NCBI GenBank assembly: GCA_027492485.1
Contig: JAPUER010000022.1
Coordinates: forward strand, 16,296-80,295
Direction: 5' to 3'
From: Betaproteobacteria bacterium
GTDB taxonomy: Bacteria > Pseudomonadota > Gammaproteobacteria > Burkholderiales > Casimicrobiaceae
Length of the DNA: 64,000 nucleotides
The position numbers and the translations under genes were made by a program. The notes below the pieces were generated by a model that was not told the DNA's origin, made no database searches, and saw nothing but the letters and a program-made list of their open reading frames with translations. Below, one piece after another: positions 204-53,047 of this stretch; within the stretch, counting starts at the first letter, position 1, and every line of letters starts with the position of its first letter.

Positions 204-328
204 GATACATCTTTACGATGAATGCCGCATCGGATAAGGGCTCCGGCCGCAAATTGGCTGAAAGTCGACTTCATGCGAAATATCGCGCCATGCCTAGCGC
301 AGATACCGCATAAGCAAAAAAGCTGATG
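204..328. repeat. Dispersed 123-bp palindromic element, copy A
   Basis: Central AAGTCGACTT at 262-271, right end AAAAAAGCTGAT at 316-327, degenerate left end near 205-214 (ATACATCTTT). The arms are about 61 bp each side of the centre, as in the other copies (7115, 24085, 26074, 37645, 45734 and 52929). It fills most of the 168-329 gap and stops two bases before the stop codon of the minus-strand DUF3108 gene. Confidence 0.75.
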
Positions 329-329
329 G

Positions 330-1502
330 CTACTCGGTGCTGATCGCCGTCAGTTCGAACGAGGCACTGCGGCCCTGCCCGTTCACCACTTTCAGCCGCA
401 GCGGGATGTAGTGAAACTCGGGTGACAGCCAGAAGGTGGCGTTGCCGTTCGGCTTGCCGTCGGCGTCGGGTTTGCGGCTGCCCTTCCAGACCTGGGTGGC
501 GACCTTTTTCAGCTGGCGCTGGCCGGTGACCGGGTCGGCATCGCCGGTCGGCACCTCGATCGTTTCCTCGCCCGCGCGGTCGAGCGTATAGACATCCATA
601 CGCCGCGTGGTGCCGACGCTGAGCGTCACGCGGTCGGTCTTCGGCGTCGAAAAATAGAACTGCACGATCCAGGTCAGCGCATCGTGCGGCTGCCCCTCGA
701 ACGGCACCGGCTCCTTGTCCGGCAGGCGCAGCACGCCTTTGTCGTAGTCGAAGACCACTTCGCGCCGCTTGTCGGGGTTGCCGCGTTCCTCGACGAATTT
801 TTCCGGGCGCAGGCCGTCGGCGGTGATCTGCCCTTCCGATTCGCCGGTGAAGGTGCCGGGATAGAGCAGCGCTGCGATACCGCGACCGCGGCCGACGATG
901 CGCAGCTTGTAGCGGCCGTTGTCGTGGCTGAATTGCAGCACCACCGGGCCGACCTCGAACTTCTGCTCGCCGAGAAACGCGGTGTAGCCGAGGTTGATCT
1001 TCTTCGGCGGCATGCGCGCCGGCGGCGGTGGCGGCTCGGGGGCGGGTGGTGGCGGCGCCGGTTCCGGCGGCGGCGGTGCGGCAGCGACTGCTGGCTCGGG
1101 CGCCGCGGCGCTGTCCGGCGCGGCGGGCGCAACCGGGGTCAGGTCCGGCACCGGGTCGGCAACGATGGCAACCGGCGCTTCGGCGGCGACGACCGGCTTC
1201 GGCCGCTTCGGTTTCGGTTTCGGCTTCGGCGCCGGCGGCGGCGTTGCGACCGGCAGCGGCGGGGGCGGCAGCGGCATCAGCTTCGCCGCCAGCGTGATGC
1301 GCTGGTCCTCCGGCGGCTCCACATCGGCGGTGGCGCCGATCAGCAGATGCAGCAGGATCGAGGCCGCCAGCGCCAGCGTCAGCTTGCGGCGCGGCGTCGC
1401 CAGCAGGCCGCGACGGCTGGCCAGGCCACGCGCCAGGTCAAAGCGGGCCGCATCGTGGGCCGCCGGGTTCACATTCACGCGGGAGGAGACAGCATCGGCC
1501 AT
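330..1502 (-). CDS. DUF3108 protein with TonB-like proline-rich linker
   Basis: 390 residues. A short cytoplasmic start is followed by one membrane segment (about residues 41-58, LTLALAASILLHLLIGA), a long Pro/Ala/Lys-rich stretch (about 75-165, including repeated PKPKPK) and a C-terminal folded domain (about 168-390) resembling DUF3108. The arrangement, inner-membrane anchor plus proline-rich spacer plus periplasmic domain, recalls TonB, but the C-terminal domain is not TonB-like. DUF3108 proteins are described as periplasmic and of unknown function; they commonly sit beside purN in Betaproteobacteria. It lies 42 bp downstream of purN on the same strand and is probably cotranscribed. The shadow frames on the other strand come from its GC-rich proline repeats. 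Function not known. Confidence 0.85.
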   Translation of the reverse strand: MADAVSSRVNVNPAAHDAARFDLARGLASRRGLLATPRRKLTLALAASILLHLLIGATADVEPPEDQRITLAAKLMPLPPPPLPVATPPPAPKPKPKPKRPKPVVAAEAPVAIVADPVPDLTPVAPAAPDSAAAPEPAVAAAPPPPEPAPPPPAPEPPPPPARMPPKKINLGYTAFLGEQKFEVGPVVLQFSHDNGRYKLRIVGRGRGIAALLYPGTFTGESEGQITADGLRPEKFVEERGNPDKRREVVFDYDKGVLRLPDKEPVPFEGQPHDALTWIVQFYFSTPKTDRVTLSVGTTRRMDVYTLDRAGEETIEVPTGDADPVTGQRQLKKVATQVWKGSRKPDADGKPNGNATFWLSPEFHYIPLRLKVVNGQGRSASFELTAISTE

Positions 1503-1544
1503 GGCGGCGGCTAAACGCTGGCGCCGATGGCCGCGATGACAGGG

Positions 1545-3298: not shown

Positions 3299-3324
3299 AA
3301 TGGTTCTTGCATGAACGTGTTGTA

Positions 3325-5978: not shown

Positions 5979-7085
5979 ATGAAAGTGATTGTCGGTCTCT
6001 CCGGCGGCGTCGATTCCGCCGTTTCCGCCTGGCTGCTCAAGGCGCAGGGCCATGAGGTGCTCGGCATCTTCATGAAGAACTGGGAGGACGACGACAACAG
6101 CGAATACTGCTCCTCGCGCGAGGATCTGGTCGACGCGGTCAGCGTGGCCGACCACATCGGCATCGACATCGAGGTGGTGAACTTCGCCACCGAGTACAAG
6201 GACCGCGTGTTTTCGTACTTTCTGGCCGAATACCAGGCCGGCCGCACGCCGAACCCGGACGTGCTGTGCAACACCGAGATCAAGTTTGCCGCCTTTCTCG
6301 ACCACGCGATGCGGCTGGGCGCCGACAAGATCGCCACCGGCCATTACGCCGGCGTGCGCGAGGCGACCGATGGCTCGGGCCGCGTCGAACTGCTCAAGGG
6401 CGACGACGACAGCAAGGATCAGTCGTACTTTCTGCACCGGCTGAATCAGGCGCAGCTGTCGAAGGCGATGTTTCCGCTGGCGAACATTCCCAAGCGCGAG
6501 GTGCGCGCGATCGCCGAACGCGAGCGCATCCCGAACTTCGCCAAGAAGGATTCGACCGGCATCTGCTTCATCGGCGAGCGGCCGTTCCGCGAATTCCTCG
6601 AACGCTATCTGCCGAAGACGCCGGGCCGCATGGTCACGCCCGAGGGCGAGGACGTCGGCGCCCATCAGGGGCTCGCGTACTACACGCTGGGCCAGCGCGG
6701 CGGCCTGCACATCGGCGGCTCACGGGCAGGCTCGGGCGAGCCGTGGTACGTGGCCGGCAAGGACATGGCGAACAACCGACTGATCGTGGTGCAGGGCCGC
6801 GAGCACCCGGCGCTGCGCCGCAACGACGTGCCGCTGGTCAACACGCACTGGATCGCCGGCAGCGAGCCGGTTGCCGGCAACGGCCGAGGCGCGGTCGCCG
6901 AAGGCGGCTACGGCGGCAAGACGCGCTACCGGCAACCGGATGCCGCCTGCGAATACCGGCCGCATGGCGGCGTCGATGGCCAGCCGCTGCTGCACTTCCA
7001 AGAGGGCCAGTGGGCACCGACGCCGGGACAGTACGCGGTGCTGTATCGCGGCAACGTCTGCCTGGGCGGCGGGGTGATCGCCTGA
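5979..7085 (+). CDS. mnmA: tRNA-specific 2-thiouridylase MnmA
   Basis: 368 residues. Adds sulfur to U34 of tRNA Lys, Glu and Gln, taking persulfide sulfur from the Tus relay. The PP-loop ATPase motif SGGVDS is at residues 8-13, the first catalytic Cys is C97 ([11 protein letters not shown]) and the second C196 ([10 protein letters not shown]). GHYAGV and [13 protein letters not shown] are further family segments. Start ATG 5979 gives the standard N-terminus [13 protein letters not shown]; the frame is open upstream but without family similarity. It lies between a terminator and repeat copy B, so it is probably transcribed alone. Confidence 0.96.
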
Positions 7086-7114
7086 GCAGTCCGACCGCAG
7101 GACGGCACCCGGCC

Positions 7115-7238
7115 TATCAGCTTTTCGATGCTGTGCGCTGTGCATATGGGCTGGACACGCTTTTCAAGCAAAAGTCGACTTAATGCGATTTACCGCGTCG
7201 AACCCATTACGGCAAAGGCTGCAATACAAAAGCTGCTT
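7115..7238. repeat. Dispersed 123-bp palindromic element, copy B
   Basis: Left end TATCAGCTTTT (7115-7125), centre AAAGTCGACTT (7171-7181), right end AAAAGCTGCTT (7228-7238). It occupies most of the gap between mnmA and the next gene, both on the plus strand. Confidence 0.85.
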
Positions 7239-7297: not shown

Positions 7298-7795
7298 ATG
7301 ACACCACGCACCGCGCTTCGCCATTCGCTGATCTACGTCCTGGTCGTCGCGCTCGCCGCGCCGGCCCCGATGACGCTGGCGCAGCAGTCGATGGCCCCGG
7401 CCACCGTGCCGGCGCCGGCTGCCAGCACGGCGACCAACGAAGCGACGGCGAAGAAACAGATCGCGGCGGCGCAGGCCAATCAGGCCGCCCTACGCATCAC
7501 GCGCAAGGCGGCGGACGAGTATGCGGTGCTCAACGTCGGCAACGGCAGCATCGTGATCAAGACCAAGTACTGCCACGAGTACGTGCGCGACGAAGAAGCC
7601 CTGCTGCAGACCAGCGAAGACGGCGCCGAAAACGCGCTGCTGTTCGCCACCGGCGCCTATTGCGAAGTGGTCGGCGTCAACAAGGAAAACGACCGCAGCT
7701 ACGGCCTGTTCGACTTCCTGATCGACCTCGGCCTGATGCTGCTGAACAGGGCCACCGGCGGCGTGACGCCGAAACCGATGCCGAAGCGCAATTAG
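7298..7795 (+). CDS. Secreted protein of unknown function
   Basis: 165 residues. An N-terminal signal peptide (LIYVLVVALAAPAPMTLAQ) ends near residue 29, then a Thr/Ala-rich linker, then a compact domain from about residue 60. That domain has two Cys (KYCHEY and AYCEVV), which could pair in the periplasm, and a hydrophobic stretch LFDFLIDLGLMLL near the end. No family was recognised. It is convergent with the amidohydrolase gene (17 bp apart) and separated from mnmA by repeat copy B, so context does not help. It appears real because of its signal sequence, spacing and codon use. Confidence 0.65.
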   Translation: MTPRTALRHSLIYVLVVALAAPAPMTLAQQSMAPATVPAPAASTATNEATAKKQIAAAQANQAALRITRKAADEYAVLNVGNGSIVIKTKYCHEYVRDEEALLQTSEDGAENALLFATGAYCEVVGVNKENDRSYGLFDFLIDLGLMLLNRATGGVTPKPMPKRN

Positions 7796-21892: not shown

Positions 21893-23299
21893 TTACGCGA
21901 AACTGACAACGAATCGCGCGCCGTTCATGGCGGAAGTTTCGACGCGCACGCTGCCGCCATGCGCTTGCGCGACCTCGCGAACGATGGCGAGACCGAGGCC
22001 GGTGCCGGGGATTGGCGCGCCCGACTCGGTGTCGAGTTGCGCGACCCTGGCGAACGGCGCGAACACCCGTTCGCGATCGGCCTCGGCGATGCCCGGCCCG
22101 GAGTCGTCGACGACGATGCGCGACGGCTCGGCGCGCACGGCAAGCACCACGGTGCCGCCGCGCGGCGCGTATTTGAAGGCGTTGTCGACCAGATTGCGCA
22201 CCAGTTCGCCGATCAGCGTGGCGTCGCCCATGATCGCGACCTGCGTCGCCGACGGTTCGAACGCGAAATCGATTTCGCGTTCGATGGCCTGCGGCAACAC
22301 GTCGTGCGCGACGCCTTCGCACAGCGCATTCAGCACCACCGGCTGCCGGGCACCGGTGGTGCCGGCGCTTTCGGCGCGGGCCAGCGCCAGCAACTGATTG
22401 GCCAGCCGGCTGGCGCGGCGCCCGGTCGCCACCAGTCGCTGTACGGCGTTGTCGCGCTCGCTGCCTTCGGGCAAGCGCTGCACCAGTTCGCTTTGTGTGC
22501 GCAGCGCTGCCAGCGGCGTGCGCAACTGGTGCGCGGCGTTGGCGATGAACCGCTTCTGCGCGGCCAGCGAGGCCTGCAGGCGCTCGATCAGCGCGTTCAT
22601 CGAGGCGATCAGCGGTGCGATTTCGTGCGGGGCCAGTTGCTCGGGCAGCGGCGTCCAATCGTCGGCGGAACGCGCGTCGAGGTGTTGCTGCAATTCCTTC
22701 ATCGGGCGCGCGACATAGGTAAGCCCGTACCAGAGCAGGTAGAACGCCACCAACAGCACAGCCGTCTGCGCCAGCGCCTCGTGCAGCATGCCGGTCCTGA
22801 GCAATGCCGCCTGGCGTTCGCGCGATTGCGCCACGGCCAGCGTGAAATCGCGGGCGCCCGCCGTGAAGCGCAGTCGCACCACGCGCATCACGGCGTCGTC
22901 CATCACCGTGTTGAAGCCCTGTACGTGGCGGAATTCGCGCGGAACAACCGGCGCCGCTTCCGGGCTGTCGGCGTCGGCCGTCGCGCGCAAAAACGGCTGC
23001 AGGGAATCGTCACCCGCCACCGGCACGCCGCCGGCGTCGACGATCAGGTAAAGCACCGGGAACTCCGGCACCAGATTCATCCACTGCTTGGTCGCCTCCG
23101 ACGGGATCGGCAGATCGGGGCGCGTCGTCGCCCGCTGCTCCCACTCCGACATCAGCATCGCCGAGACTGCGCTCAGGCCATCGTCGAGCGCGGTGTCGAC
23201 GGTGGTACGGGCGCTCATGAACGAGATGCCCAGGCTGACCAGCCAGATCGAAAGCAGCGGCGCCAGCAGCCATTCCAGCAGCCGCGCGGCAAGACTCAT
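21893..23299 (-). CDS. Sensor histidine kinase, TctE/QseC-like
   Basis: 468 residues. Two membrane helices (about 8-30 and 160-185) bracket a periplasmic sensor region. A HAMP-like linker precedes the dimerisation helix with the phosphorylated His in NAAHQLRTPLAALRTQ, then the ATPase domain with N box VRNLVDNAFKYAPRGG, G1 box VDDSGPGIAEAD and G2 box GTGLGLAIVREVAQAHGG. The ATG overlaps the response-regulator stop (ATGA), so both are made together. The next gene downstream is the MHS transporter and the divergent side holds a Bug binding protein, as in tricarboxylate (Tct) loci, which suggests it senses an organic acid. Confidence 0.92.
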   Translation of the reverse strand: MSLAARLLEWLLAPLLSIWLVSLGISFMSARTTVDTALDDGLSAVSAMLMSEWEQRATTRPDLPIPSEATKQWMNLVPEFPVLYLIVDAGGVPVAGDDSLQPFLRATADADSPEAAPVVPREFRHVQGFNTVMDDAVMRVVRLRFTAGARDFTLAVAQSRERQAALLRTGMLHEALAQTAVLLVAFYLLWYGLTYVARPMKELQQHLDARSADDWTPLPEQLAPHEIAPLIASMNALIERLQASLAAQKRFIANAAHQLRTPLAALRTQSELVQRLPEGSERDNAVQRLVATGRRASRLANQLLALARAESAGTTGARQPVVLNALCEGVAHDVLPQAIEREIDFAFEPSATQVAIMGDATLIGELVRNLVDNAFKYAPRGGTVVLAVRAEPSRIVVDDSGPGIAEADRERVFAPFARVAQLDTESGAPIPGTGLGLAIVREVAQAHGGSVRVETSAMNGARFVVSFA

Positions 23300-24039
23300 T
23301 GCGTGCGGGCTGCGGCGCGCGACGCCTCGTCGTGTCCGTTAATGGCCTTGTCGCTGCCGTTGAGGGCGGGCTTGTCGATGCAGTAGCCAAGACCGCGGAA
23401 GGTGCGCACCTGGATGCCGGCCGGCTCCAGCTTCTTGCGCAGGCGGTGCACGTACACCTCGATGGCGTTCAGCGAAATATCGCTGTCCCAGGCGCAGAGG
23501 CCTTCCATCAGTTGTTCCTTGGTCACCGCGCGACCGGCGCGCAGCAGCAGCACTTCGAGAATGCCTGCCTCGCGCACCGAGAGTTCCAGCGGTGTGCCGT
23601 CGGACGAGGCCTGCCGGGAGGCGATGTCGAAGGTCAGGCGGCCATGTGCCAGCAGATTGCTGGTGGCGGCGTTGCGGCGACGGATCAGCGCGCGCACCCG
23701 GGCATGCAATTCGTCGAGCGCGAAGGGCTTCACCAGATAGTCGTCGGCGCCGGCGTCCAGCCCCTCGACGCGATCGGTGACGGAGTCCATCGCCGTGGTG
23801 ATCAGCACCGGCACCGATTTCTGCGCTTCGCCGCGCGAGCGCAACTGGCGCAGCACCTGCAACCCGGACATCTTGGGCAGCCCGAGATCGAGAATCACCA
23901 GATCGTATTGCGCCGTGCTCAGTGCCGTCGACGCCGAGGGGCCGTCGGTCACCCAGTCCACCGCGTAATGCTCGCGTTTCAGGCTCGCGCAGACGCCACT
24001 GCCCAGCTCGGCGTCATCCTCCACCAGCAGAATTCGCAC
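23296..24039 (-). CDS. OmpR-family response regulator, TctD-like
   Basis: 247 residues. Receiver domain: LLVEDDAELG acidic pair, phosphorylation Asp in YDLVILDLGLPKMSG, Thr in VLITTAMDS, Lys in DDYLVKPFALDEL. C-terminal winged helix: LELSVREAGILEVLLLRAGRAV to VYVHRLRKKLEP and RTFRGLGYCID. The start is GTG 24039, with AGGAGG seven bases upstream; upstream codons add no similarity. A polar tail of about 25 residues follows the usual end. Likely controls the transporter below it and perhaps the divergent Bug/aldolase genes across repeat copy C. Confidence 0.93.
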   Translation of the reverse strand: MRILLVEDDAELGSGVCASLKREHYAVDWVTDGPSASTALSTAQYDLVILDLGLPKMSGLQVLRQLRSRGEAQKSVPVLITTAMDSVTDRVEGLDAGADDYLVKPFALDELHARVRALIRRRNAATSNLLAHGRLTFDIASRQASSDGTPLELSVREAGILEVLLLRAGRAVTKEQLMEGLCAWDSDISLNAIEVYVHRLRKKLEPAGIQVRTFRGLGYCIDKPALNGSDKAINGHDEASRAAARTQ

Positions 24040-24084
24040 GATGTTTCCTCCTGCCGCAAGTGTAGTGTTTTGGCACAACGGACG

Positions 24085-24218
24085 TATCAGCTTTATGTCG
24101 AATGCGCCATTTGGCAAGGGTGTGGCCGATCATTTGTCAACAAGTCGACTTTCGATGTTTTCTCTTCATGCGCCCAATGGATACGGCGCTTGCAGCGATG
24201 AATTTCACAAAGCTGATA
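24085..24218. repeat. Dispersed palindromic element, copy C (134 bp)
   Basis: Left end TATCAGCTTTA (24085-24095), centre AAGTCGACTTT (24142-24152), right end AAAGCTGATA (24209-24218). The outer 10-bp ends are perfect inverted repeats. The right arm is about 10 bp longer than in other copies. It occupies the divergent promoter region between the response regulator and the Bug gene. Confidence 0.88.
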
Positions 24219-26062: not shown

Positions 26063-26073
26063 TCCAGCCAGGG

Positions 26074-26197
26074 TATCAACTTTTTCCCCGTAAACGGCAT
26101 TGGCGCTGGACTCAGGGTTCGGAAATGGTAAAAGTCGACTTTTGCTGATTTTCCGCTTTCAACCCCGATCGAATGCGCGTTTCATGCTAAAGCTGAT
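26074..26197. repeat. Dispersed 123-bp palindromic element, copy D
   Basis: Left end TATCAACTTTTT (26074-26085), centre AAAAGTCGACTTTT (26129-26142), right end TAAAGCTGAT (26188-26197). It sits between convergent genes and its right end supplies the last codons and stop of tcdA (TGA at 26182-26184 on the minus strand). Confidence 0.88.
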
Positions 26198-26973
26198 TCG
26201 CCGCAATGGCTGATCTCATCCAGCGCACACCCCGCCGCCAGCAGGCCCATGCTCGCGGTCATGTGCATCGCCGAGCCGTAGCCGGCGCAGGCGAGCCCGG
26301 CGCCGCCGTCCGCCGGCGCCGATGCCTGCGGCTCGGTGCTGTAGATCGCGGTGATGCGAAACTTTTTGTCGCCGCGCGGGAAGGCGTAGTCGCGCCGCAA
26401 GGTCGCGCGCAACTTCGACAGCAGCGCGTCGTGCGCCGTCAGCGCCAGATCGCCGGTGGTCAGGCGCGAGGCATCGGTCTTGCCGCCGGCGCCACCGCAG
26501 ACGTACACCGGCAATCGGTGTGTCACGCAATGCGCCACCAGCGCGGCCTTGGCGCGCACCTGATCGATGGCGTCGATGACGAAGCTGGCAGCGACCGGGA
26601 TCAGTGCGGCCAGGTTGTCCGGCGTCACGAAATCGTCGACGACGTCGACCTGACAATCCGGCGCGAAGCTGGCAATGCGTTCGCGCATCGCATCCACCTT
26701 GTTGCGCCCGAGATTGGCCAGCGTGGCGTGTGCCTGCCGGTTGAGGTTCGATTCCGCCACCACGTCGAGGTCGATCAGCGTCAGCCGCCCGACGCCGGAG
26801 CGCGCCAGCGCTTCCGCCGCCCACGAGCCGACGCCGCCGATGCCGACCACCACGCCGTGCGCCGCGCGGATGCGGGCGAAACCGGCCGCGCCATAGAGCC
26901 GCGCCACGCCACCCAGGCGCCGCGCGGCGTCGTCATCGAGGTCGGCGCCGCATGCGCTGGCAGGGGTCGTCAT
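26182..26973 (-). CDS. tcdA: tRNA threonylcarbamoyladenosine dehydratase
   Basis: 263 residues, ThiF/MoeB/HesA fold. It cyclises t6A37 of tRNA to ct6A with ATP. The nucleotide-binding GIGGVGSWAAEALARSGVG, the segment LIDLDVVAESNLNRQAHAT and DAIDQVRAKAAL are the CsdL/TcdA signature; a Cys is in YVCGGAGGKTD. Length is close to the E. coli protein. The last residues (GESALA) are encoded by the end of repeat copy D, so the natural C-terminus may have been replaced when the element inserted. Confidence 0.92.
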   Translation of the reverse strand: MTTPASACGADLDDDAARRLGGVARLYGAAGFARIRAAHGVVVGIGGVGSWAAEALARSGVGRLTLIDLDVVAESNLNRQAHATLANLGRNKVDAMRERIASFAPDCQVDVVDDFVTPDNLAALIPVAASFVIDAIDQVRAKAALVAHCVTHRLPVYVCGGAGGKTDASRLTTGDLALTAHDALLSKLRATLRRDYAFPRGDKKFRITAIYSTEPQASAPADGGAGLACAGYGSAMHMTASMGLLAAGCALDEISHCGESALA

Positions 26974-27228: not shown

Positions 27229-27308
27229 GATGGATGCCTTGGGGGCGCACGCAATGCGCCCGGAAATGTCGGTCAATCGGTCATTTTAGGGAAACGTTGA
27301 ACAAGCCC

Positions 27309-27388
27309 CCGTTCACCCTGAACGAAGTGAAGGGTTTGACAACTGAGTGAGGGTTGCAGACCCTTCGCCTTTGGCTCAGGGCGAACGG
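27309..27388. repeat. Inverted repeat of the CCGTTCGCCCTGA type
   Basis: Arms CCCGTTCACCCTGAACGAAG... (from 27309) and ...GGCTCAGGGCGAACGG (to 27388) pair over about 30 bp with a short loop. Same family as 30942-31019, 41642-41708, 45627-45708 and the single arm 50910-50940. It lies just beyond the 3' end of the methyltransferase gene. Confidence 0.85.
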
Positions 27389-30941: not shown

Positions 30942-31019
30942 CCCGTTCGCCCTGAGGCGGAGCCGAAGGGTTTGCCAGCGTGAAGCATCAAACCCTTCGC
31001 TGCGCTCAGGGCGAACGGC
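30942..31019. repeat. Inverted repeat of the CCGTTCGCCCTGA type
   Basis: Left arm from 30942 (CCCGTTCGCCCTGAGGCGGA) and right arm to 31019 (CGCTCAGGGCGAACGG) are complementary over about 30 bp around a 15-bp loop. It fills the gap between the alpha/beta hydrolase stop and hemJ. Confidence 0.85.
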
Positions 31020-36950: not shown

Positions 36951-37460
36951 TCAGCGACCGCCGTACTCGCCGGTCAGGAAGTCGAGCGCGAGGTCATAGC
37001 CGCGCACCCCCATGCCGACGATGATGCCGCGCGCAATGGCGCTCAGGTAGGAGTGATGGCGGAATTCCTCCCGCGCATGCACGTTGGTGATGTGCACTTC
37101 GATGAACGGCAGCGAGGCGCCGGCAAAGGCGTCGCGCAGCGCCACACTGGTGTGGGTGAAGGCGCCGGCGTTGATGATGCAGGCGCGGGTGCCATCGGTG
37201 CGGCTGGCGTGGATGCGGTCGAGCAGCACGCCTTCGTGGTTGCTTTGCAGACAATCGAGCTCGAATCCGGCCTTGGCGGCCCGCTCGGCCAGGTGGGTTT
37301 CGAGCTGCGCCAGCGTGGTGGAGCCGTATTTCTCGGGCTCGCGGGTGCCGAGCAGGTTGAGGTTCGGCCCGTGCAGCAGCAACAGGCGCGGCGCCTTGTC
37401 GCCGGTGGTTTTGCGTGACTTGTCGGCCTTTGCAGCGGCCGATTTAGCGTCTTTCGCCAT
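36951..37460 (-). CDS. aroQ: Type II 3-dehydroquinate dehydratase
   Basis: 169 residues. Third step of the shikimate pathway. Family motifs: [20 protein letters not shown] (catalytic Tyr), [27 protein letters not shown] and [19 protein letters not shown] (catalytic His). About 27 residues rich in Lys and Ala ([17 protein letters not shown]) precede the domain; the start at ATG 37460 therefore is either real with a basic tail or the true start lies inside. First gene of the aroQ-accB-accC-prmA run. Confidence 0.94.
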
Positions 37461-37820
37461 CAGGAATGACTCGCATCGAGCGGAAAAATCAATGCGAGTT
37501 GAATTGAGATGGGCGATAGTTTGCCTGAAATCGGGATTTGTTGCCAGATGGCGACAGAATTTTCCGCCCGATCCGAGGGTTGGCGACCGCCTTGCCGGCT
37601 GGCAAACGGCCGTCAACGACTTGGGACGGGCGGCGCGAAATTCTTATGGCTTTTTGCGGAAAACCCCAATTGAATAGGGCTCAGAGCCGCAAAATACCAA
37701 AAGTCGACGAATAGGCATTTGATGCTTTGAGCCCATATCCAATGGCGCGTCCAGCGAAAAGCTATACAGCGACTCGTGACGATCGTACGCGGCGCAAACC
37801 CTCGCCGCGAAACAATCGAA
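37461..37820. other. 360-bp gap between aroQ and tlpA
   Basis: Contains the aroQ promoter region and repeat copy E (37645-37766). An AT-richer patch (37490-37560) could hold the promoter, but no boxes could be assigned with confidence. No further gene seen. Confidence 0.5.
37645..37766. repeat. Dispersed 123-bp palindromic element, copy E
   Basis: Left end TATGGCTTTTT (37645-37655), centre AAAAGTCGAC (37699-37708) with its right half decayed, right end AAAAGCTATA (37757-37766). GAGCCCATATCCAATGG in the right arm matches GAGCCCATATTGGATAAGG in copy F. Confidence 0.8.
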
Positions 37821-38360
37821 TTAGCTCAACATCGATGCAATTTCGCCGTATTTGAGCCGACCTACGCGACGAAGCATCACTTCGCCGGCCGGCGAAACAA
37901 CCAGCGAGAACGGCAGCACGCCCTGCGGATTGCCCATCGTCTTCAGGGCTTCCAGCCAGGCGACGTCGGCCAGCAGCACCGGATAGTTGACGCCAATCTC
38001 TTTCGCGAAGTGCTCCACCGGTTGCCGACGATCGACGGCGATGCCGACAAATTGCAGGCCTTTGCCGCCAAAATCGGTTTGCGCCTTGACGAAATCCGGC
38101 ATTTCTTCGCGGCACGGCCCGCACCAGGTGGCCCAGAAGTTGATCACCAGCGTCTTGCCTTGCCAGGTCGACATCGGCGTTTGCTTGCCGCCGTCGAGCG
38201 CCTCGAAGCTGGCGCCGAGCAGTTTCGCCTCCTCGCCCTTGACTGCGCCGCGCGTCAGCCACCAGTGCCCGCCGAGCACGCCGATCGCGCCGGCCGAGAC
38301 ACCGGCAGCGCCGATCAGCAGGGCGCGGCGTCCGCCGCTTGTCGATTCACTCATTGCCAT
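37821..38360 (-). CDS. TlpA-type thiol:disulfide oxidoreductase
   Basis: 179 residues. One N-terminal helix (about 13-33, a Tat-like or Sec-type anchor after RR at 11-12) places a thioredoxin domain in the periplasm. The active site is WATWCGPC (C80, C83), with the cis-Pro in GVLPFSLV. TlpA/ResA proteins reduce periplasmic disulfides, for example in cytochrome maturation. It starts 4 bp after the free DsbD-alpha domain gene, which could be its partner in electron transfer. ATG 38354 is an alternative start. Confidence 0.88.
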   Translation of the reverse strand: MAMSESTSGGRRALLIGAAGVSAGAIGVLGGHWWLTRGAVKGEEAKLLGASFEALDGGKQTPMSTWQGKTLVINFWATWCGPCREEMPDFVKAQTDFGGKGLQFVGIAVDRRQPVEHFAKEIGVNYPVLLADVAWLEALKTMGNPQGVLPFSLVVSPAGEVMLRRVGRLKYGEIASMLS

Positions 38361-41477: not shown

Positions 41478-41517
41478 GGGCTGCGCAGGACGATAGACGA
41501 AGGACGATGTGAGGCCA

Positions 41518-41765
41518 GGACGAATGACGAAGGACGAATGACGAAATCGGTCGTTCGTATTGCTTTTGTCGCGGGTCGGCTTGGGAGTGTAAGGCGGACC
41601 GGGGGCGGTGAGAGAATATTGCTCCGGCACAATATGGGTGGCCGTTCGCGCTGAGGCTAGGCCGAAGCGTTTGCCAATCAAACCCTTCGCTACGCTCAGG
41701 GTGAACGGAGTTCATGCTTCACCGTTCCGCGCGACTTTTCGTCATTCGTCCTTCGTCATTCGTCC
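41518..41765. repeat. 248-bp region flanked by perfect 28-bp inverted arms
   Basis: Arm 41518-41545 begins GGACGAATGACGAAGG and is repeated as its exact reverse complement at 41738-41765. Each arm itself holds two 9-bp AATGACGAA units. Between them lies another palindromic repeat (41642-41708). It occupies the divergent lgt-ilvD space. The structure is like a miniature inverted-repeat element but encodes nothing. Confidence 0.8.
41642..41708. repeat. Inverted repeat of the CCGTTCGCCCTGA type
   Basis: Arms CCGTTCGCGCTGAGGC... (from 41642) and ...CGCTCAGGGTGAACGG (to 41708), nested in the 28-bp-armed region 41518-41765. Slightly decayed compared with other copies. Confidence 0.75.
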
Positions 41766-41775
41766 TTCACCAAAC

Positions 41776-44163: not shown

Positions 44164-45606
44164 ATGAAAGCCACCAAAATCGTTGCCACGCTCGGGCCTG
44201 CGAGCGATACCGTCGACATCATCGCCGCGATGATCGAGGCCGGAGCCGATGTGTTCCGCCTCAACTTCTCGCACGGCACGCCGGAAGATCACGCCGGCCG
44301 CGCCAACCGCGTGCGCGAGGCGGCCGTCCGCTGCGGCCGCGAGGTCGGCATCATGGGCGATCTGCAGGGCCCCAAGATTCGCGTCGGCAAATTCGACGGC
44401 GGCCGTGCCCACCTCGAGGCCGGGCAGCCGTTCATCCTCGACGCCGCGCTCGACAACAAGGCGCCGCTGTCCAACGGCGAACGCGCCAGCCTCGACTACA
44501 AACAACTGCCGCAGGATGTCCGGCCCGGCGACACGCTGCTGCTGGCCGACGGGCTGATCCAGTTGACGGTGACCCGCGTCGACGGCGACGCCGTGCACAC
44601 CATCGTCATCCACGGCGGCGAACTGTCCAACAACAAGGGCATCAACAAGCTCGGCGGCGGCCTCACCGCGCCGGCGCTGACCGCGAAAGATCTCGCTGAC
44701 ATCAAGACGGCGGTGGACATCGACGTCGACTACCTCGCGGTGTCGTTCCCGAAAAGCGCGGCCGACATGCAGACCGCGCGCACGGTGCTGGCGGCGGCGG
44801 GCGGCAAGGCCCGGCTGATCGCCAAGATCGAGCGCGCCGAGGCGATCGTGCCGCAGACGCTCGACGAAATCATCGACGTCAGCGACGGCATCATGGTGGC
44901 GCGCGGCGATCTCGCCGTCGAGGTGGGCAACGCGGCGGTGCCGGCGCTGCAAAAGCGCATGATCGTGCGCGCCCGCGACAAGAACAAGCTGGTGATCACC
45001 GCCACGCAGATGATGGAGAGCATGATCACCGCGCCGGTGCCGACGCGCGCCGAGGTGAGCGACGTGGCCAACGCCGTGCTCGATGGCACCGATGCCGTGA
45101 TGCTGTCGGCCGAGTCCGCCGCCGGCAAGTATCCGGTGGAAACGGTCAAGGCGATGGCCGCCATTGCGCTCGCCGCCGAGCGCTCGCAGGTGTACGAGCT
45201 CGACCGCGACTTCATCAACCAGCAGTTCGTGCGGGTCGACCAGGCCATCGCGATGGCATCGCTGTTCGCCGCGTTCCACCTGAACGCCAAGGCGATCGCC
45301 GCGCTGTCGCAATCCGGCTCCACCGCGCTCTGGATGAGCCGGCACGACAGCGGCGTGCCGATCTACGCGCTGACGCCGGAGGCCGCCGCCGCCCGCCGCG
45401 CCGCGCTGTACCGCGGCGTGCGCCCGGTGGTAGTGCCGTTCGACGCCGATCGCGACCGCGCCCTGCAAGCGGCGGAGGACGCGCTGAAATCGCGCGCCGC
45501 CGTGGCCGACGGCGATCTCGTTGTGCTCAGTTGCGGCGAACCGATGGGCAAGAGCGGCGGCACCAACGCGCTGAAAGTCGTCCGCGTCGGTGAGCATCGG
45601 AGCTGA
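44164..45606 (+). CDS. pyk: Pyruvate kinase
   Basis: 480 residues. Last step of glycolysis. MKATKIVATLGPAS, VFRLNFSHGTPEDH, GDLQGPKIRVG, the active-site segment RLIAKIERAEAI, MVARGDLAVEVG, ATQMMESMITAPVPTRAEVSDVANAVLDG (read in parts) and AVMLSAESAAGKYP are visible. C-terminal regulatory domain from about 350. Start ATG 44164. Confidence 0.97.
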   Translation: MKATKIVATLGPASDTVDIIAAMIEAGADVFRLNFSHGTPEDHAGRANRVREAAVRCGREVGIMGDLQGPKIRVGKFDGGRAHLEAGQPFILDAALDNKAPLSNGERASLDYKQLPQDVRPGDTLLLADGLIQLTVTRVDGDAVHTIVIHGGELSNNKGINKLGGGLTAPALTAKDLADIKTAVDIDVDYLAVSFPKSAADMQTARTVLAAAGGKARLIAKIERAEAIVPQTLDEIIDVSDGIMVARGDLAVEVGNAAVPALQKRMIVRARDKNKLVITATQMMESMITAPVPTRAEVSDVANAVLDGTDAVMLSAESAAGKYPVETVKAMAAIALAAERSQVYELDRDFINQQFVRVDQAIAMASLFAAFHLNAKAIAALSQSGSTALWMSRHDSGVPIYALTPEAAAARRAALYRGVRPVVVPFDADRDRALQAAEDALKSRAAVADGDLVVLSCGEPMGKSGGTNALKVVRVGEHRS

Positions 45607-45626
45607 GCACACACTGATTACAAGCT

Positions 45627-45708
45627 CCCGTTCGCCCTGAACGCAGTGAAGGGTTCGACCATTGGATGCCGATTTCAGACCCTTCGCCTTCGGCTCAGGG
45701 CGAACGGT
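45627..45708. repeat. Inverted repeat of the CCGTTCGCCCTGA type
   Basis: Arms CCCGTTCGCCCTGAACGCAG... (45627 onward) and ...CGGCTCAGGGCGAACGG (to 45708), about 30 bp each. Directly after pyk and probably part of its mRNA end; copy F of the other element follows 26 bp later. Confidence 0.88.
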
Positions 45709-45733
45709 TCCTACTTGATCATCAGCGTTTTCG

Positions 45734-45855
45734 TAACAGCTTTTCAGGCAAATGGCGTCAGCATTGGGCTAGCGACGCGAAATACTGAATAGTCGACTTT
45801 TAGACCAATCATGCCATGAGCCCATATTGGATAAGGCTTTCAGCGAAAAGTTGAT
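45734..45855. repeat. Dispersed 123-bp palindromic element, copy F
   Basis: Left end TAACAGCTTTT (45734-45744), centre AGTCGACTTTT (45791-45801), right end AAAAGTTGAT (45846-45855). Right arm contains GAGCCCATATTGGATAAGG, shared with copy E. Sits 40 bp before coaBC. Confidence 0.85.
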
Positions 45856-45895
45856 CGCCTCATAGCGCGTCCGCGACGGCGGCTACACTGCGCGC

Positions 45896-47149
45896 ATGGA
45901 AGCTCAAGTCAAACCGACGCAGCGCGTGCTGCTCGGCATCACCGGCGGCATCGCCGCCTACAAAGCGGCCGAATTGACGCGGCTGCTGGTCAAATCCGGC
46001 CGCGACGTGACCGTGGCGATGACCGCGGCGGCGCGCGAATTCGTCGGCCCGGCCACCTTCCAGGCGCTGTCCGGCCGTCCGGTCTACAGCGATCTGTGGG
46101 ACACACGGCCCGACAACGGCATGGCGCACATCGAGCTCACCCGCAATAACGACGTGATGCTGATCGCGCCGGCGTCGGCCGATTTTCTCGCCCGCCTGGT
46201 GCACGGCCGCAGCGACGATCTGCTGTCGACCACCGTGCTGGCGCGCACCATTCCGCTGATCGTGGCGCCGGCGATGAATCTGCAAATGTGGCAAAACCCG
46301 GCCACCCAGCGCAACGTCGCCACCCTGCGCGCCGACGGCGTGCACGTCATCGGCCCCGGCAACGGCGATCAGGCCTGCGGTGAAGTGGGCGACGGCCGCA
46401 TGCTGGAGCCCGCCGAAATCATGGCCGCGCTCGACGCTTGGGCGCAACCGAAAACCCTGCTCGGCAAGCGCGTGCTGATCACCGCCGGTCCCACGCAGGA
46501 AGCGATTGATCCGGTGCGAGTAATCACCAACCACTCCAGCGGCAAGATGGGCTATGCCCTCGCCCAGGCCTGCGCCGAGGCCGGCGCCGAGGTCGTGCTG
46601 GTCAGCGGGCCGACGCATCTATCGACGCCCTTCGCAGGCGTTGCGCCTGGCGAACCCGGCAGCGTGCGCCGCGTCAACGTCGTCAGCGCCGGCGAGATGC
46701 TCGCCGCGGTCGAAACCGAAGTGGACGAGAGCGACATCTTCATCGCCGTCGCCGCCGTCGCCGACTACCGCCCGGTCGCCAGCGCCGAACAGAAGATCAA
46801 GAAGAGCGACGCCGGGCTCAACATCCATCTCGAGCCCACGGTCGACATCCTCGCCCGCATCGCCAGACACGCGCGCCGCAGCGCCAATCCGGCGCGAACC
46901 GGCACGCCACCGTTCTGCGTCGGCTTCGCCGCCGAAAGCGAAAACGTCGAGCAATACGGCGCCGAAAAGCGCGCCCGCAAAGGCATCCCGCTACTCATCG
47001 CCAATCACGCGCAGAGCACGTTTGGAGCGGATGACAATCAGGTGACGCTGATTGACGAGCGCGGCGCGGAAGGCGCAACGCGGCTACCGCGGATGGGGAA
47101 GCTGGCGCTGGCGCGCGCCCTGGCGGCGGAGATCGCATCACGCATCTGA
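45896..47149 (+). CDS. coaBC: Bifunctional phosphopantothenoylcysteine decarboxylase / phosphopantothenate-cysteine ligase
   Basis: 417 residues. Makes 4'-phosphopantetheine from phosphopantothenate and Cys. CoaC flavin domain (about 1-185): LLGITGGIAAYKAAELTRLL, PASADFLARLVHG, PAMNLQMWQNPATQRN and the active Cys in GDQACGEVGDGRM. CoaB domain: VLITAGPTQEAIDPVRVITNHSSGKMGYA (read in parts), then VAAVADYRP and KIKKS, and FAAESENVEQYGAEK. ATG 45896. Confidence 0.96.
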   Translation: MEAQVKPTQRVLLGITGGIAAYKAAELTRLLVKSGRDVTVAMTAAAREFVGPATFQALSGRPVYSDLWDTRPDNGMAHIELTRNNDVMLIAPASADFLARLVHGRSDDLLSTTVLARTIPLIVAPAMNLQMWQNPATQRNVATLRADGVHVIGPGNGDQACGEVGDGRMLEPAEIMAALDAWAQPKTLLGKRVLITAGPTQEAIDPVRVITNHSSGKMGYALAQACAEAGAEVVLVSGPTHLSTPFAGVAPGEPGSVRRVNVVSAGEMLAAVETEVDESDIFIAVAAVADYRPVASAEQKIKKSDAGLNIHLEPTVDILARIARHARRSANPARTGTPPFCVGFAAESENVEQYGAEKRARKGIPLLIANHAQSTFGADDNQVTLIDERGAEGATRLPRMGKLALARALAAEIASRI

Positions 47150-47877: not shown

Positions 47878-48295
47878 GTAAACGCGGCCCCGCCGCTGTT
47901 CTCGCTGCGGCGCAGCCGAAGGGCCTGCAACGCCTTCGTCCAATGGCGTTTCCCAACCGCGGCCCGCGGCACCGCATGCATGCTGCTCTACGGTGATTTG
48001 TGGGAGCGGGCTTGCCCGCGAATGCAGACGATTCACGGGGGCGTACGCCACCACAAAGTTCGGATGTTGGTGGAGGCTTCGCGGGCAAGCCCGCTCCTGC
48101 AGGTCGCGCGTCGACTCACCGGATCATCCGCTATCGCTACTCGGCAGCGAACGGCCTTTGCGGCACAGAGTGGGCCGCGGCTGCCCACCCTACGGCGAGC
48201 ATGGTGACTACGGCGTCCGACCGCGTTTGGTTGCCGCCAGCGCGCGATCAAACCTGCGCTCACACCGGCAGACGGTCGTCTTGATGCGAGCCGCC
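47878..48295. other. 418-bp gap after the toxin gene, with a REP element
   Basis: Holds the REP-like inverted repeat 48000-48101 and GC-rich sequence with phrases such as GGGCCGCGGCTGCCCACCCTAC (48173-48194, read in parts) that look like further degraded repeat sequence. No gene with support was found on either strand. Confidence 0.55.
48000..48101. repeat. REP-like inverted repeat GTGGGAGCGGGCTTGCCCGC
   Basis: Left unit 48000-48021, right unit 48079-48101 inverted, about 57 bp apart. Same sequence type as 49968-50024 and the truncated one at 63965-63986, and very like the REP sequences of Pseudomonas. Confidence 0.85.
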
Positions 48296-49733: not shown

Positions 49734-50033
49734 CCGCGGCCGTCAACCGCGAAAGCGCTTGTAAGGCATTGATTGTTATAGACATTTATTTTCTCGCCGG
49801 CACTGCTTTGAGCACGACGTCGCCAATTTGGCGAGCCGCGCCACCGTTCGAACTGCCAATTTGCGGCAGGACGCTGCCCGTGGCAGTCAGCGCTAGGCGC
49901 GCTGCGCGTTGGGAACACATCGAAAACGTTTCCCTGCCGAATCGGCAGCGCAATGTTTGACTTGCTTTGTGGGAGCGGGCTTGCCCGCGAAGGCAGGCGA
50001 TTCGCGGGCAAGCCCGCTCCCACAGGCCACACT
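49734..50033. other. 300-bp gap upstream of the pilA promoter
   Basis: Could hold PilR binding sites upstream of the sigma-54 promoter. Most of the rest is the REP element 49968-50024 and unassigned sequence; a short GGCAGC-rich patch near 49930 is unexplained. No gene seen. Confidence 0.5.
49968..50024. repeat. REP-like perfect inverted repeat
   Basis: Arms of 23 bp (49968-49990, TGTGGGAGCGGGCTTGCCCG..., and 50002-50024) are perfectly complementary over an 11-bp loop. The element follows the stop codon of the Uma2 gene (50034) on the minus strand by about 10 bases. Confidence 0.9.
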
Positions 50034-50851: not shown

Positions 50852-50909
50852 ACGGAATGAACGCAAGCAACTAATCAGGTGAGGGTTTCACAATTCGCGG
50901 CCCGCCGGT

Positions 50910-50940
50910 ACCGTTCGCCCTGCGCGAAGCGAAGGGTCTG
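50910..50940. repeat. Single arm of the CCGTTCGCCCTGA repeat
   Basis: TACCGTTCGCCCTGCGCGAA then GCGAAGGGTCTG. Only one arm is present; it lies just past the end of the DUF3025 gene. Confidence 0.7.
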
Positions 50941-50974
50941 ATGTCAGAGGGGGTTGTCGCCAGTATGAGGAAAC

Positions 50975-51724
50975 TCAATCACGCAAACGCCGGGGTCGGA
51001 ACACGGCGCGATCGTCGTAGCAGTCCGGGTGTTCGTTCTCGGCAAACCAGCCCGGCACGCCGAGGATGGGCAACGGCAGACGATGCTCGGCGGCAGCGAG
51101 CAGGTGTCCGCCAACAATTCCGTTGGCGAGATGCCGGTCCAGCGTGGCGAGCGGCGTGGCGGGCGACCGATCGACCCACAGCGCCTTCACCGTCAGCCCG
51201 CGATGCGGATTGCTGGCGAGTTGCTCCAGCGTGCCGTGGCCGAACAGGATGACGCGGCAGTGGCGAACGAACGCCGTTCGGTGCTCGACGAACAGCCGCC
51301 GCCACTCGTGCGCTTCGTGCAGTGCGCGCAGATCGGCGCGCTGGCTGACGATCAGCGCGCCGGCTTCGTCGAACAGCGTCAGGATGTCGCGCCGGCGCGG
51401 ACGGCCGTTGGCAGTCGCCGCGGCGCCCAGCGCGACGTGGGCTTCGCTGATGGCGCGCTTCGATTGCGGAAAAGCACGCCAGACCAGTGCGTTGACGGTG
51501 TCGTGCAAATTGCCCGGGCGGACGATCAGCTCGTTGCGCTCGACCAGGCGGCGCTCGAATTCAAGTGCGCCGAGCGCGCGGGGCGGCGGCGGGACGAGCG
51601 TGGGGCCGATTGCTTGCGGCGCCGACGAACCCATCGCATCGCGATAGGGCGCGAATGCCGGGTGCCCGAACAGCGCTGGCGGGACGTCCGCCAGCGCGAC
51701 CGCGTCAACGGTGGCGTCCGCCAC
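50975..51724 (-). CDS. DUF3025 family protein
   Basis: About 249 residues from GTG 51724. Segments ELIVRPGNLHDTVNALVWRAFPQSKRAI and LTLFDEAGALIVS, and FGHGTLEQLASNPHRGLTVKALWV and VPGWFAENEHPDCYDDRAVFRPRR, match the DUF3025 family, common in Betaproteobacteria and of unknown function; conserved His and Asp suggest an enzyme. It begins inside the last 20 bases of the zinc-ribbon gene, so the start could also be at TTG 51754. Confidence 0.82.
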   Translation of the reverse strand: MADATVDAVALADVPPALFGHPAFAPYRDAMGSSAPQAIGPTLVPPPPRALGALEFERRLVERNELIVRPGNLHDTVNALVWRAFPQSKRAISEAHVALGAAATANGRPRRRDILTLFDEAGALIVSQRADLRALHEAHEWRRLFVEHRTAFVRHCRVILFGHGTLEQLASNPHRGLTVKALWVDRSPATPLATLDRHLANGIVGGHLLAAAEHRLPLPILGVPGWFAENEHPDCYDDRAVFRPRRLRD

Positions 51725-52877
51725 CCAGCCCGCCCAGCACGACGAAGACCACAATCAGCGCAGCGATCACCGCCAGCGCGATCTTGATCCAGCTCTTCGG
51801 ATATTCGCCGTCGATCTTGCCGGTGACGGCGTTGATGATGACCTGAAAATCCTTGCTGGAATAGACATAGGTCAGCAGCCACACCGGCGCCAGGATGTGC
51901 TTGAAGGTCTGCCGCGAGAAGTTGGCGTTGATCTGCAGATTGCGCTGGGTGTCGCCCGGCACCTGCTGCGAGCAGAGCGTGCGGGTGTCGTCCAGCATGC
52001 GTTCGCGGCTGGCTTTCGCGGCGGCGATCAGGTCGATCTGATAGCGCTCGACCGTCCAGCCGCTGACATAGGCCGGGTCGTAGGCTTTGAGCGCGCCGGT
52101 GCCTTTCTCGGTGGTCGGGAACGGCTCGATGTTGCGCAACAGGCCCTGATGCACGCCCCTCGAGCCGCAGACCAGCGTGTCGTCAAAGAAATGGTTGAGG
52201 CTGCCGGAGGCGTATTCCCAGCGCACGCGCTGCGCCTGCCGCGTCTTCTGCTCGCCGTTCTCGTAATAGGTCTCGGTGACGTAGTAGTAGTAGCCGGCCT
52301 CGGCCTGCCAGCGGGCATCGACCAGCGCATCGAACGTCCAGTACGGCAGATAGACGCCCTTGACGGTGTCGGTCATCGCCTTGCGCTTGAGCGCGTTCGG
52401 CGCCCACCAGAGCTTGCCGTACCAGGCGCGGATGCGGTCGCGCGCCTGCGGCTCGCTGACCTGGAACGGCAGGATACCTTCCGGCCGGATCACGTCGCCC
52501 GATTCGTCGTAATCGACAATCGCCGAGGCGCCGCAGAATTCGCAGGACTTGGCCTGTTTCGAGGCGTCGAAGACGCTGATCGCCTGGCACTGCCGGCACT
52601 TGATCATGCGCGTGGCGCGCGCCCAGCCGCGCGCTTCGCCCTGCATGTCGCGCAGCGCGGCGACGAGATCGTGTTCGACGACGTCGGTGGACTGGATGCC
52701 CGGGATCGCCTCGGACTCCTTCGGCATCGGCGCCTCGGTACCGCAAAAGGCGCACACCAGCTTCTGCTTGGCAGGATTCCACACCGCCTCGCCGCCGCAC
52801 GCAACGCAGGTGTACTTGCTGCGGGCCTGCTTTTCAGGGGCGGTGGCAGCGGTGTGGGTGGCGGTGGGTGGATTCAT
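51705..52877 (-). CDS. Double zinc-ribbon membrane protein, YdjG-like
   Basis: 390 residues. Two treble-clef ribbons: CVACGGEAVW with CAFCGTEA (about 24-47) and CRQCQAISVF with CEFCGASA (about 93-118). A folded middle domain contains GKLWWAPNALKRKAMTD and WTFDALVDARWQAEAGYYYY, and a C-terminal membrane helix lies at about 363-383 (IKIALAVIAALIVVFVVLGG). This domain order resembles Bacillus YdjG, which works with the SPFH protein YdjI and PspA-family YdjF at the membrane. The SPFH protein here is two genes upstream (53222), supporting the match. Confidence 0.82.
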   Translation of the reverse strand: MNPPTATHTAATAPEKQARSKYTCVACGGEAVWNPAKQKLVCAFCGTEAPMPKESEAIPGIQSTDVVEHDLVAALRDMQGEARGWARATRMIKCRQCQAISVFDASKQAKSCEFCGASAIVDYDESGDVIRPEGILPFQVSEPQARDRIRAWYGKLWWAPNALKRKAMTDTVKGVYLPYWTFDALVDARWQAEAGYYYYVTETYYENGEQKTRQAQRVRWEYASGSLNHFFDDTLVCGSRGVHQGLLRNIEPFPTTEKGTGALKAYDPAYVSGWTVERYQIDLIAAAKASRERMLDDTRTLCSQQVPGDTQRNLQINANFSRQTFKHILAPVWLLTYVYSSKDFQVIINAVTGKIDGEYPKSWIKIALAVIAALIVVFVVLGGLGGGRHR

Positions 52878-52928
52878 GGCAGGGAGATCCGATGATGCTT
52901 AAACGCCGCGGAGGGCGCAAACTTCCAG

Positions 52929-53047
52929 TCAGCATTTGTCCAGAACGACCGCTGCATCGGGAGCAATCTGGCAAATCGCGCAAAGTCGACATCAAGCCAA
53001 ATCGGCGGCTGGTCCCCGTTCAGTGGCGCTTTCATCGAAAAGTTAAT
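52929..53047. repeat. Dispersed 123-bp palindromic element, copy G
   Basis: Left end TCAGCATTT (near 52929), centre AAAGTCGAC (52982-52990) with decayed right half, right end AAAAGTTAAT (53038-53047). The most diverged copy. It separates the zinc-ribbon gene from the small membrane gene that ends at 53043. Confidence 0.7.

What the first reader, a model, noticed from the sequence alone, without database searches (positions are those of the whole stretch)
204..53047. Seven copies of a roughly 123-bp ERIC-like palindromic element
Copies at 204-328, 7115-7238, 24085-24218, 26074-26197, 37645-37766, 45734-45855 and 52929-53047 share ends TATCAGCTTT / AAAGCTGATA, a central AAAGTCGACTTT and inner arm words such as GCCCATATTGGATAAGG. 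All but one keep about 61 bp each side of the centre (copy C has a 71-bp right arm). They are confined to gaps and have no coding capacity, so they resemble ERIC/BIME-type elements. I know no described family with this centre in Betaproteobacteria.
Basis: partly seen in the sequence, partly recalled or inferred. Interest (0 to 1): 0.8.

Follow-up and report, generated by a model that had tools for sequence, protein, structure and literature searches.

The report
Evenly spaced symmetric chromosome sites
In one genus of Burkholderiales bacteria, several hundred 124-base mirror-symmetric DNA sites appear to sit between genes about every 11 to 13 thousand bases, and where tested they keep their places in a related species while most of their letters change, which looks like a set of chromosome-organising sites rather than a jumping repeat.

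Summary
The seven copies are real: a model built without any window copy finds 7 of 7, and shuffled DNA gives none. They belong to a family of roughly 350-370 per genome, extrapolated from 99 in 1.2 Mb of congener G005 and 36 in 423 kb of the window's own genome. They do not behave like ERIC. (1) Copies look like independent draws from one weight matrix; no two distinct copies of those compared exceed about 0.71 identity. (2) 17 of 17 sites with two-sided synteny carry an element at the orthologous place in G005, and G005's interval syntenic with the window holds exactly seven. (3) Spacing is more regular than chance in G005 (two stretches strongly, one weakly), borderline in one G000 contig. 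(4) No target duplications; arms of one copy pair hardly better than arms of different copies. Constraint follows a symmetric A/T-G/C block pattern to about 61 bp each side of GTCGAC. Best reading: double-stranded sites for an unidentified symmetric nucleoprotein complex that organises the chromosome. Binder and function are inferred, not shown. A gyrase-site reading was tested and not supported.

The parts
206..329 (.). Element A: symmetric ~124-bp site, 2 bp from the stop of gene 330-1502(-); element at the orthologous place in G005 (930564)
7114..7238 (.). Element B: between a tRNA methyltransferase-family gene (5979-7085 +) and 7298-7795 (+); G005 orthologue at 923507
24084..24218 (.). Element C: 10-bp insertion in the right arm; divergent gap between a response regulator (23296-24039 -) and a TctC-family gene (24346-25314 +); G005 orthologue at 899497
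26073..26198 (.). Element D: perfect centre AAAAGTCGACTTTT; convergent gap, overlaps the 3' end of 26182-26973(-) by about 16 bp; G005 element 895497 lies in a wider (2.4-kb) syntenic interval
37645..37765 (.). Element E: between DHquinase_II-family gene (36951-37460 -) and a redoxin-family gene (37821-38360 -); element at the same site in G005, G012, G014, G016, G018
45733..45857 (.). Element F: between pyruvate kinase (44164-45606 +) and a coaBC-like flavoprotein gene (45896-47149 +); element at the same site in 5 congeners, weak in G007, none in G010
52929..53048 (.). Element G: weakest copy; between 51705-52877(-) and an SPFH-domain gene (53222-54325 -); element at the same site in G005, G012, G018, a G010-type one in G010, none found in G006, G007, G014, G016, G020

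Best explanation
Each element is a double-stranded recognition site, dyad-symmetric about GTC|GAC and about 61 bp long on each side, for a symmetric multi-subunit protein assembly that contacts or wraps about 124 bp. Several hundred such sites, on average one per 11-13 kb, sit in intergenic gaps and probably divide or anchor the chromosome at a scale like that of bacterial supercoiled domains. SHOWN on the sequence sampled: symmetry, near-fixed arm length, position-specific constraint, near-independence of copies, orthologous placement in G005, spacing more regular than chance, intergenic siting with convergent gaps favoured, detection only in this genus, and species-specific consensus words. 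INFERRED: that a protein binds, that it wraps the DNA, and that the role is chromosome organisation.
For: Model and shuffled control. Position-specific information: GTCGAC, A/T blocks at distances 4-7, 12-15, 44-45, 52-55 and GGGC at 26-29 are strong, while 8-11, 16-21 and 47-50 are near random. 88 G005 copies: forward pairwise identity mean 0.511, sd 0.045, max 0.672 against 0.511, 0.041, 0.664 for column-shuffled copies. 17 of 17 sites with two-sided synteny filled in G005, while elements occupy 99 of 590 counted gaps; exactly seven elements in G005's interval syntenic with the window. Spacing CV 0.49, 0.67, 0.37 in three 400-kb G005 stretches against a null of about 0.91; 0, 0.037 and 0 of 5000 randomisations are as low. 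Pooled 124 intervals, CV 0.55, 2.4% below 0.3 of the mean against 26% for a Poisson process. Convergent gaps favoured, 24 of 70, odds ratio 3.1, p 1.2e-4. Neighbours are mixed, mostly housekeeping-type genes. The abstracts of PMC3420936 and PMC3820752 (search listing only) give 10-kb domains and 400-500 domains for enteric chromosomes, close to the spacing here.
Against: No binding protein, ChIP or Hi-C data. Regularity is weaker in G005 stretch R2 (one 46-kb interval) and borderline in G000 C79 (CV 0.68, share 0.053). Consensus words differ among congeners and the elements are weak in G006-G010, which asks for a fast-evolving binder. The A/T profile has no clean helical period: 9.75 bp on the five-species mean over distances 1-62, but 7.25-7.75 bp in G000 and G005, so wrapping is only suggested. 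A small within-copy mirror excess exists. Site G is empty or unrecognised in 5 of 9 genomes with both flanks.
Confidence: 0.5

Rival explanations
1. Binding sites of one global transcription regulator (a very large regulon) rather than a structural system.
For: Independent, weight-matrix-like sites at conserved gene neighbourhoods with species-shifted consensus are what regulator sites look like.
Against: Sites are enriched in convergent gaps, where there is no promoter in either direction (24 of 70), lie near stop codons (median 40 bp) more than starts (median 167 bp), are non-randomly spaced, and the window neighbours share no theme. 124 bp is long for one regulator.
Confidence: 0.15
2. Old mobile palindromic element (ERIC/MITE-like) that spread in the genus ancestor and has since decayed or been domesticated.
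For: ERIC-like size, palindromic, intergenic, many copies, found only in one genus of the 64 genomes searched; half and split copies exist.
Against: No near-identical copies, no target duplications in 152 copies, conserved place in a congener (17 of 17), uneven constraint that uniform decay would not give, regular spacing. A domesticated origin is not excluded.
Confidence: 0.13
3. Strong DNA gyrase sites spread along the chromosome.
For: The E. coli gyrase motif is a symmetric 130-bp pattern with periodic G/C content in both flanks (PMC6379681, passages and section 23); gyrase preferences vary by species (PMC12324340, passages); convergent gaps are favoured.
Against: Taking the dyad as the cleavage centre, the element has the -2A but not the -4G or +1G cleavage preferences. 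Its A/T profile at the annotated Mu gyrase cut gives r 0.159, reached by 31% of 9-bp windows in that 4.5 kb, against 0.48-0.71 at 23 C79 elements (one site only). The profile's period is not 10.75 bp. Sequence words are stronger and more species-variable than a degenerate gyrase motif.
Confidence: 0.1
4. Structured RNA or single-stranded DNA element (hairpin, cruciform, terminator, mRNA stabiliser).
For: Palindromic consensus overall and locally; small within-copy excess of mirror identity (30.35 vs 28.94 of 61, z -3.7 in 75 G000 copies; 28.14 vs 27.00, z -2.2 in 88 G005 copies) and of local hairpin energy (z -2.0, -2.6); own-arm alignment score reached by only 11 of 5000 permutations.
Against: Whole-element folding energy is no better than for arm chimeras (z -0.7, -0.2); central and outer helices z between -1.9 and 0.6. 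No Rfam family at gathering score in the window. In L055 a separate terminator-like hairpin lies beside the element.
Confidence: 0.07

Closest known systems
ERIC (enterobacterial repetitive intergenic consensus; details recalled, names and sizes also in listings)
   Same: About 125 bp, palindromic, intergenic, non-coding, many copies
   Different: Here copies share only about half their letters with no recent duplicates, stay at orthologous places, and are spaced more evenly than chance; the ERIC consensus itself was not compared
REP/BIME elements
   Same: Extragenic palindromes, favoured in convergent gaps, hundreds per genome
   Different: REPs are 20-40 bp (abstract of PMC3733652) and often clustered; these are single 124-bp sites, evenly spaced
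E. coli gyrase motif and the Mu strong gyrase site
   Same: Symmetric about a 4-bp palindromic centre, ~124-130 bp, alternating A/T and G/C
   Different: Cleavage preferences met in 1 of 3, A/T profile does not match the Mu site, period differs
Chromosome-organising motif sets such as matS, parS, KOPS (recalled)
   Same: Many dispersed sites that are independent draws from one motif
   Different: Those are short and regional or strand-polar (recalled); this is 124 bp, non-polar, and found in every stretch sampled of G000 and G005

Membership tests
ERIC / MITE | About 100-200 bp, palindromic, intergenic, multicopy | tested here: met
ERIC / MITE | Copies related by descent, some nearly identical | tested here: not met
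   Maximum about 0.71 among 65 distinct G000 copies and 0.69 among 88 G005 copies; column-shuffled copies give nearly the same distribution (the shuffle was done for G005, forward orientation only)
ERIC / MITE | Target-site duplication | tested here: not met
   152 copies, 448 edge/length combinations, nothing standing out
ERIC / MITE | Filled and empty orthologous sites between close genomes | tested here: inconclusive
   17 of 17 filled in G005; site G empty or unrecognised in 5 of 9 genomes with both flanks, too diverged to show a clean empty site; no strain-level data
ERIC | ERIC consensus sequence | not tested
   Consensus not fetched; no comparison made
REP/BIME | 20-40-bp REP units with a RAYT (Y1 transposase) partner | tested here: inconclusive
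   Three Y1_Tnp matches in G000, not linked to this element; unit size does not fit
Strong gyrase site | -4G/+8C, -2A/+6T, +1G/+4C about the cleavage centre | tested here: not met
   Only -2A/+6T present if the dyad is the cleavage centre
Strong gyrase site | Symmetric ~130 bp with G/C content periodic at 10-11 bp | tested here: inconclusive
   Length and symmetry fit; spectral peaks at 9.75 and 7.25-7.75 bp; no match to the Mu site profile
Strong gyrase site | Bound or cleaved by gyrase in the cell | not testable with these tools
   Needs Topo-Seq
Structured RNA | Pairing kept within each copy by compensating changes | tested here: not met
   Folding energies equal to chimeras; small mirror-identity excess only
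Set of chromosome-organising protein sites | Dispersed sites under position-specific constraint at conserved places | tested here: met
Set of chromosome-organising protein sites | Binding protein and effect on chromosome structure | not testable with these tools
   Needs ChIP, Hi-C or mutants

The most novel reading that the evidence does not exclude
A new class of bacterial chromosome element: an array of several hundred ~124-bp symmetric nucleoprotein sites, about one per 11-13 kb, kept in place by selection on spacing and symmetry while the sequence and even the consensus turn over rapidly; that is, DNA-encoded boundaries or anchors of ~11-kb domains read by an unknown fast-evolving binder.
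Probability: 0.4. Interest if true: 0.93.

Novelty: new variant of a known kind. Interest (0 to 1): 0.8.

Why it matters
Whether the ~10-kb supercoiled domains of bacteria have fixed, DNA-encoded boundaries is a long-standing question (they are usually thought mobile or stochastic; recalled). A genus with evenly spaced, position-conserved sites would make it directly testable. It also shows a kind of element that similarity searches miss: copies share a pattern, not an alignable sequence; a DNA search with copy A found only six of the genome's copies, itself included.

Tried and rejected
RNA or cruciform folding: tested with arm chimeras, not supported beyond a small excess. Column mutual information: dominated by neighbouring columns and one-base register shifts; no clear mirror pairs; not used. 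Gyrase: attractive by length and symmetry; one test failed (cleavage preferences), the Mu profile showed no match, the period was inconclusive. RAYT link: Y1 genes exist but nothing ties them to this element. Autoregulated binder beside close element pairs: genes around two close pairs in G005 were read, not searched; nothing suggestive. Phage and plasmid relatives: one copy (D) searched in each collection, no match. Rfam E-value search on 4 loci: three hits below gathering score; PrrB_RsmZ at L055:1799-1931 (E 0.026) ends about 15 bp before that element; taken as chance. Named-genome scan with one exact pattern: 8 stretches, 5 from Burkholderiales or Proteobacteria MAGs; the Flammeovirga, Enterococcus and Clostridium hits were taken as chance and none of the 8 was examined further. 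Other-genus control G043, 200 kb: 0 hits at E<1 with five models; congener G007, 200 kb: 0 to 2 hits at E<0.01 per model. Not used: inside-element identity 0.29 printed (artefact of free end gaps) and the noncoding-flank identities (random baseline 0.69). Genus name: not determined.
Full report
THE OBSERVATION. The window is G000:C22:16296-80295 of a 4.12-Mb, 83-contig genome. AAAAGTCGACTTTT (up to 2 mismatches) occurs 136 times in G000 against 10 for the reversed control. I aligned 53 G000 copies, most of them chosen by that centre, and built a sequence-only model R1. R1 finds the seven window copies and nothing else at E up to 1. To avoid circularity I made an HMM from the 48 copies outside the window: it finds the same seven, best-strand E from 1e-9 to 9e-23. 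The models find about 99-100 places in 1.2 Mb of G005 and 0 at E<0.1 in the same DNA shuffled locally.

HOW MANY, WHERE. G005, a congener with one 4.47-Mb contig, has 35, 30 and 34 elements at E<1e-3 in three 400-kb stretches: 99 in 1.2 Mb, about 370 per genome if the rest is alike. G000 contig C79 (359 kb) has 30 hits, two of them halves of one element split by another palindromic insert, hence 29; with the window's seven, 36 in 423 kb, about 350 per genome. With R1 at E up to 0.01, 16 of 17 genomes of the genus (own included; G015 none) and 0 of 47 genomes of six other genera match. Only 54 candidates per genome were scored under strict filters, and a strongly diverged version could be missed. 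G006 to G010 have only weak best matches (E 6e-4 to 6e-7).

GENE CONTEXT. My gene caller is a simple codon-usage script. By it 99 of 99 G005 elements lie in intergenic gaps (45-bp tolerance) and 0 of 30 C79 hits lie inside genes. Occupied: 24 of 70 convergent, 56 of 398 co-directional and 19 of 122 divergent gaps; convergent odds ratio 3.1, p 1.2e-4. Of 64 G000 copies, 19 are convergent, 32 co-directional, 11 divergent, 2 unresolved. Window neighbours are mixed, mostly housekeeping-type families; 2 of the 13 proteins scanned had no Pfam match.

NOT A REPEAT FAMILY IN THE USUAL SENSE. Forward pairwise identities of 88 G005 copies (mean 0.511, sd 0.045, max 0.672) nearly equal those of column-shuffled copies (0.511, 0.041, 0.664). 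The nearest-neighbour mean, 0.625, is above the shuffled 0.606, but it takes the better of two orientations and the shuffle only one. In G000 the maximum between distinct copies is about 0.71; the 1.0 printed there is copy D entered twice. No target duplications stand out among 152 copies. Conservation is uneven: GTCGAC, A/T blocks at distances 4-7, 12-15, 44-45 and 52-55 and GGGC at 26-29 are strong; 8-11, 16-21 and 47-50 are near random. Copies were picked by the centre, so its own conservation is partly ascertainment; that of the outer blocks is not.

FIXED IN PLACE. The window is syntenic with G005 856298-930827, where G005 has exactly seven elements, one at each site (copy D's in a wider interval). 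Of 65 G000 loci queried, 22 hit the held G005 stretches well, 17 with synteny on both sides; all 17 hold an element. For four (D, L047, L078, L080) the interval searched is 2.4-3.3 kb wide, so the match of place is looser. In all congeners with both flanks found, G005 included: site E is filled in 5 of 5. F is filled in 5 of 7, plus one weak match (G007), none in G010. G is filled by R1-type elements in 3 of 9, plus a G010-type element in G010.

SEQUENCE TURNS OVER. For the 17 pairs, orthologue/non-orthologue identity is 0.36/0.32 at low-, 0.56/0.50 at middle- and 0.79/0.74 at high-information positions; third codon positions nearby are 0.70 identical. By direct alignment 4 of 34 arms exceed the paralogue mean by 2 sd, against 15 to 22 of 34 adjacent 60-bp flank windows. 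The flanks include coding DNA and the arms have less headroom, so this overstates the contrast. The low-position figure against third codon positions still suggests that free positions change fast. The cause is unproven: local mutation, selection against similarity among hundreds of copies, or small alignment losses.

REGULAR SPACING. CVs are 0.49, 0.67 and 0.37 in the three G005 stretches against about 0.91 (sd 0.14-0.16) for elements dropped at random into gaps of at least 100 bp; 0, 0.037 and 0 of 5000 randomisations are as low. C79: 0.68, share 0.053; 0.64 with the split copy merged, null not rerun. Pooled: 124 intervals, CV 0.55, gamma shape 3.4, 2.4% below 0.3 of the mean against 26% for a Poisson process. 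Means are 10.9-13.2 kb, near the 10-kb domains and 400-500 domains given in the abstracts of PMC3420936 and PMC3820752 (listing only).

DNA RATHER THAN RNA. If the palindrome worked as a fold, arms of one copy should fit each other better than arms of different copies. Whole-element energies do not differ (z -0.7 in 75 G000 copies, -0.2 in 88 G005 copies). There is a small excess of mirror identity (1.4 and 1.1 of 61 positions; z -3.7, -2.2) and of local hairpin energy (z -2.0, -2.6), too small to be the main constraint; it stays a loose end. No Rfam family at gathering score in the window.

SPECIES VERSIONS. Consensus words differ: G012 GGTCG/CGACC, G014 CCATAACGGGCTTGG, G010 local palindromes like CGCCCAATTnAATTGGGCG, mostly without the GTCGAC centre. 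A/T profiles correlate 0.56-0.96 among G000, G005, G012, G014 and G018, with only 16, 12 and 16 arms for the last three. The G010 model was self-trained (9 places at E<1e-3 in 104 kb) and gives 2 hits at E<1 in shuffled DNA, so it is the least certain.

GYRASE TESTED. The E. coli motif (PMC6379681, passages and section 23; PMC12393610, passages) made this a serious candidate. The preferences reported for several gyrases (PMC12324340, passages) are met in 1 of 3. The A/T profile gives r 0.159 at the annotated Mu cut, reached by 31% of windows there, against 0.48-0.71 at 23 C79 elements, a few of which helped to make the profile. I rate it 0.1.

LITERATURE. Seven searches of an open-licence library showed no description of such an element in the rows listed; the sequence search returned six papers unrelated by title, not opened. 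Absence from print beyond that library is not established.

VERDICT. The feature is confirmed and the interpretation changes: a position-conserved, rather evenly spaced set of symmetric sites, not ERIC-like mobile DNA. A chromosome-organising role is the most likely reading (0.5); the binder is unknown.

Noticed in passing
L128:17920-18043 and L117:15434-15527 (G005): These copies carry a near-perfect ~30-bp palindrome at the centre with flanking A/T runs, like a bidirectional terminator; most copies do not.
   Followed up: no
G000 C79 about 196093-196350 (L223:16093-16349): One element is split near its centre by about 200 bp of another G/C-rich palindromic repeat.
   Followed up: partly
window 27301-27388, 30943-31018, 41677-41708, 45620-45707, 50911-50943: A separate repeat with CCGTTCGCCCTGA...GAAGGGTTTGA arms, REP-like in look. 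G000 has three Y1 transposase matches that might be partners.
   Followed up: no
window 47994-48055 and 49963-50024: GTGGGAGCGGGCTTGCCCGCGAA palindromic repeat, 82% identical copies.
   Followed up: no
window 41517-41546 and 41737-41766; also 34826 and 54349: GACGAATGACGAAGG-type words; a perfect 30-nt inverted pair 190 nt apart.
   Followed up: no
L124:3017-3079 (G005), L139:13929-13998 (G014): Half elements: one arm plus centre, the other arm missing.
   Followed up: no
G035 (another genus of the family): 45 matches to the centre pattern against 12 for the control but none to model R1; possibly an unrelated or strongly diverged element.
   Followed up: no
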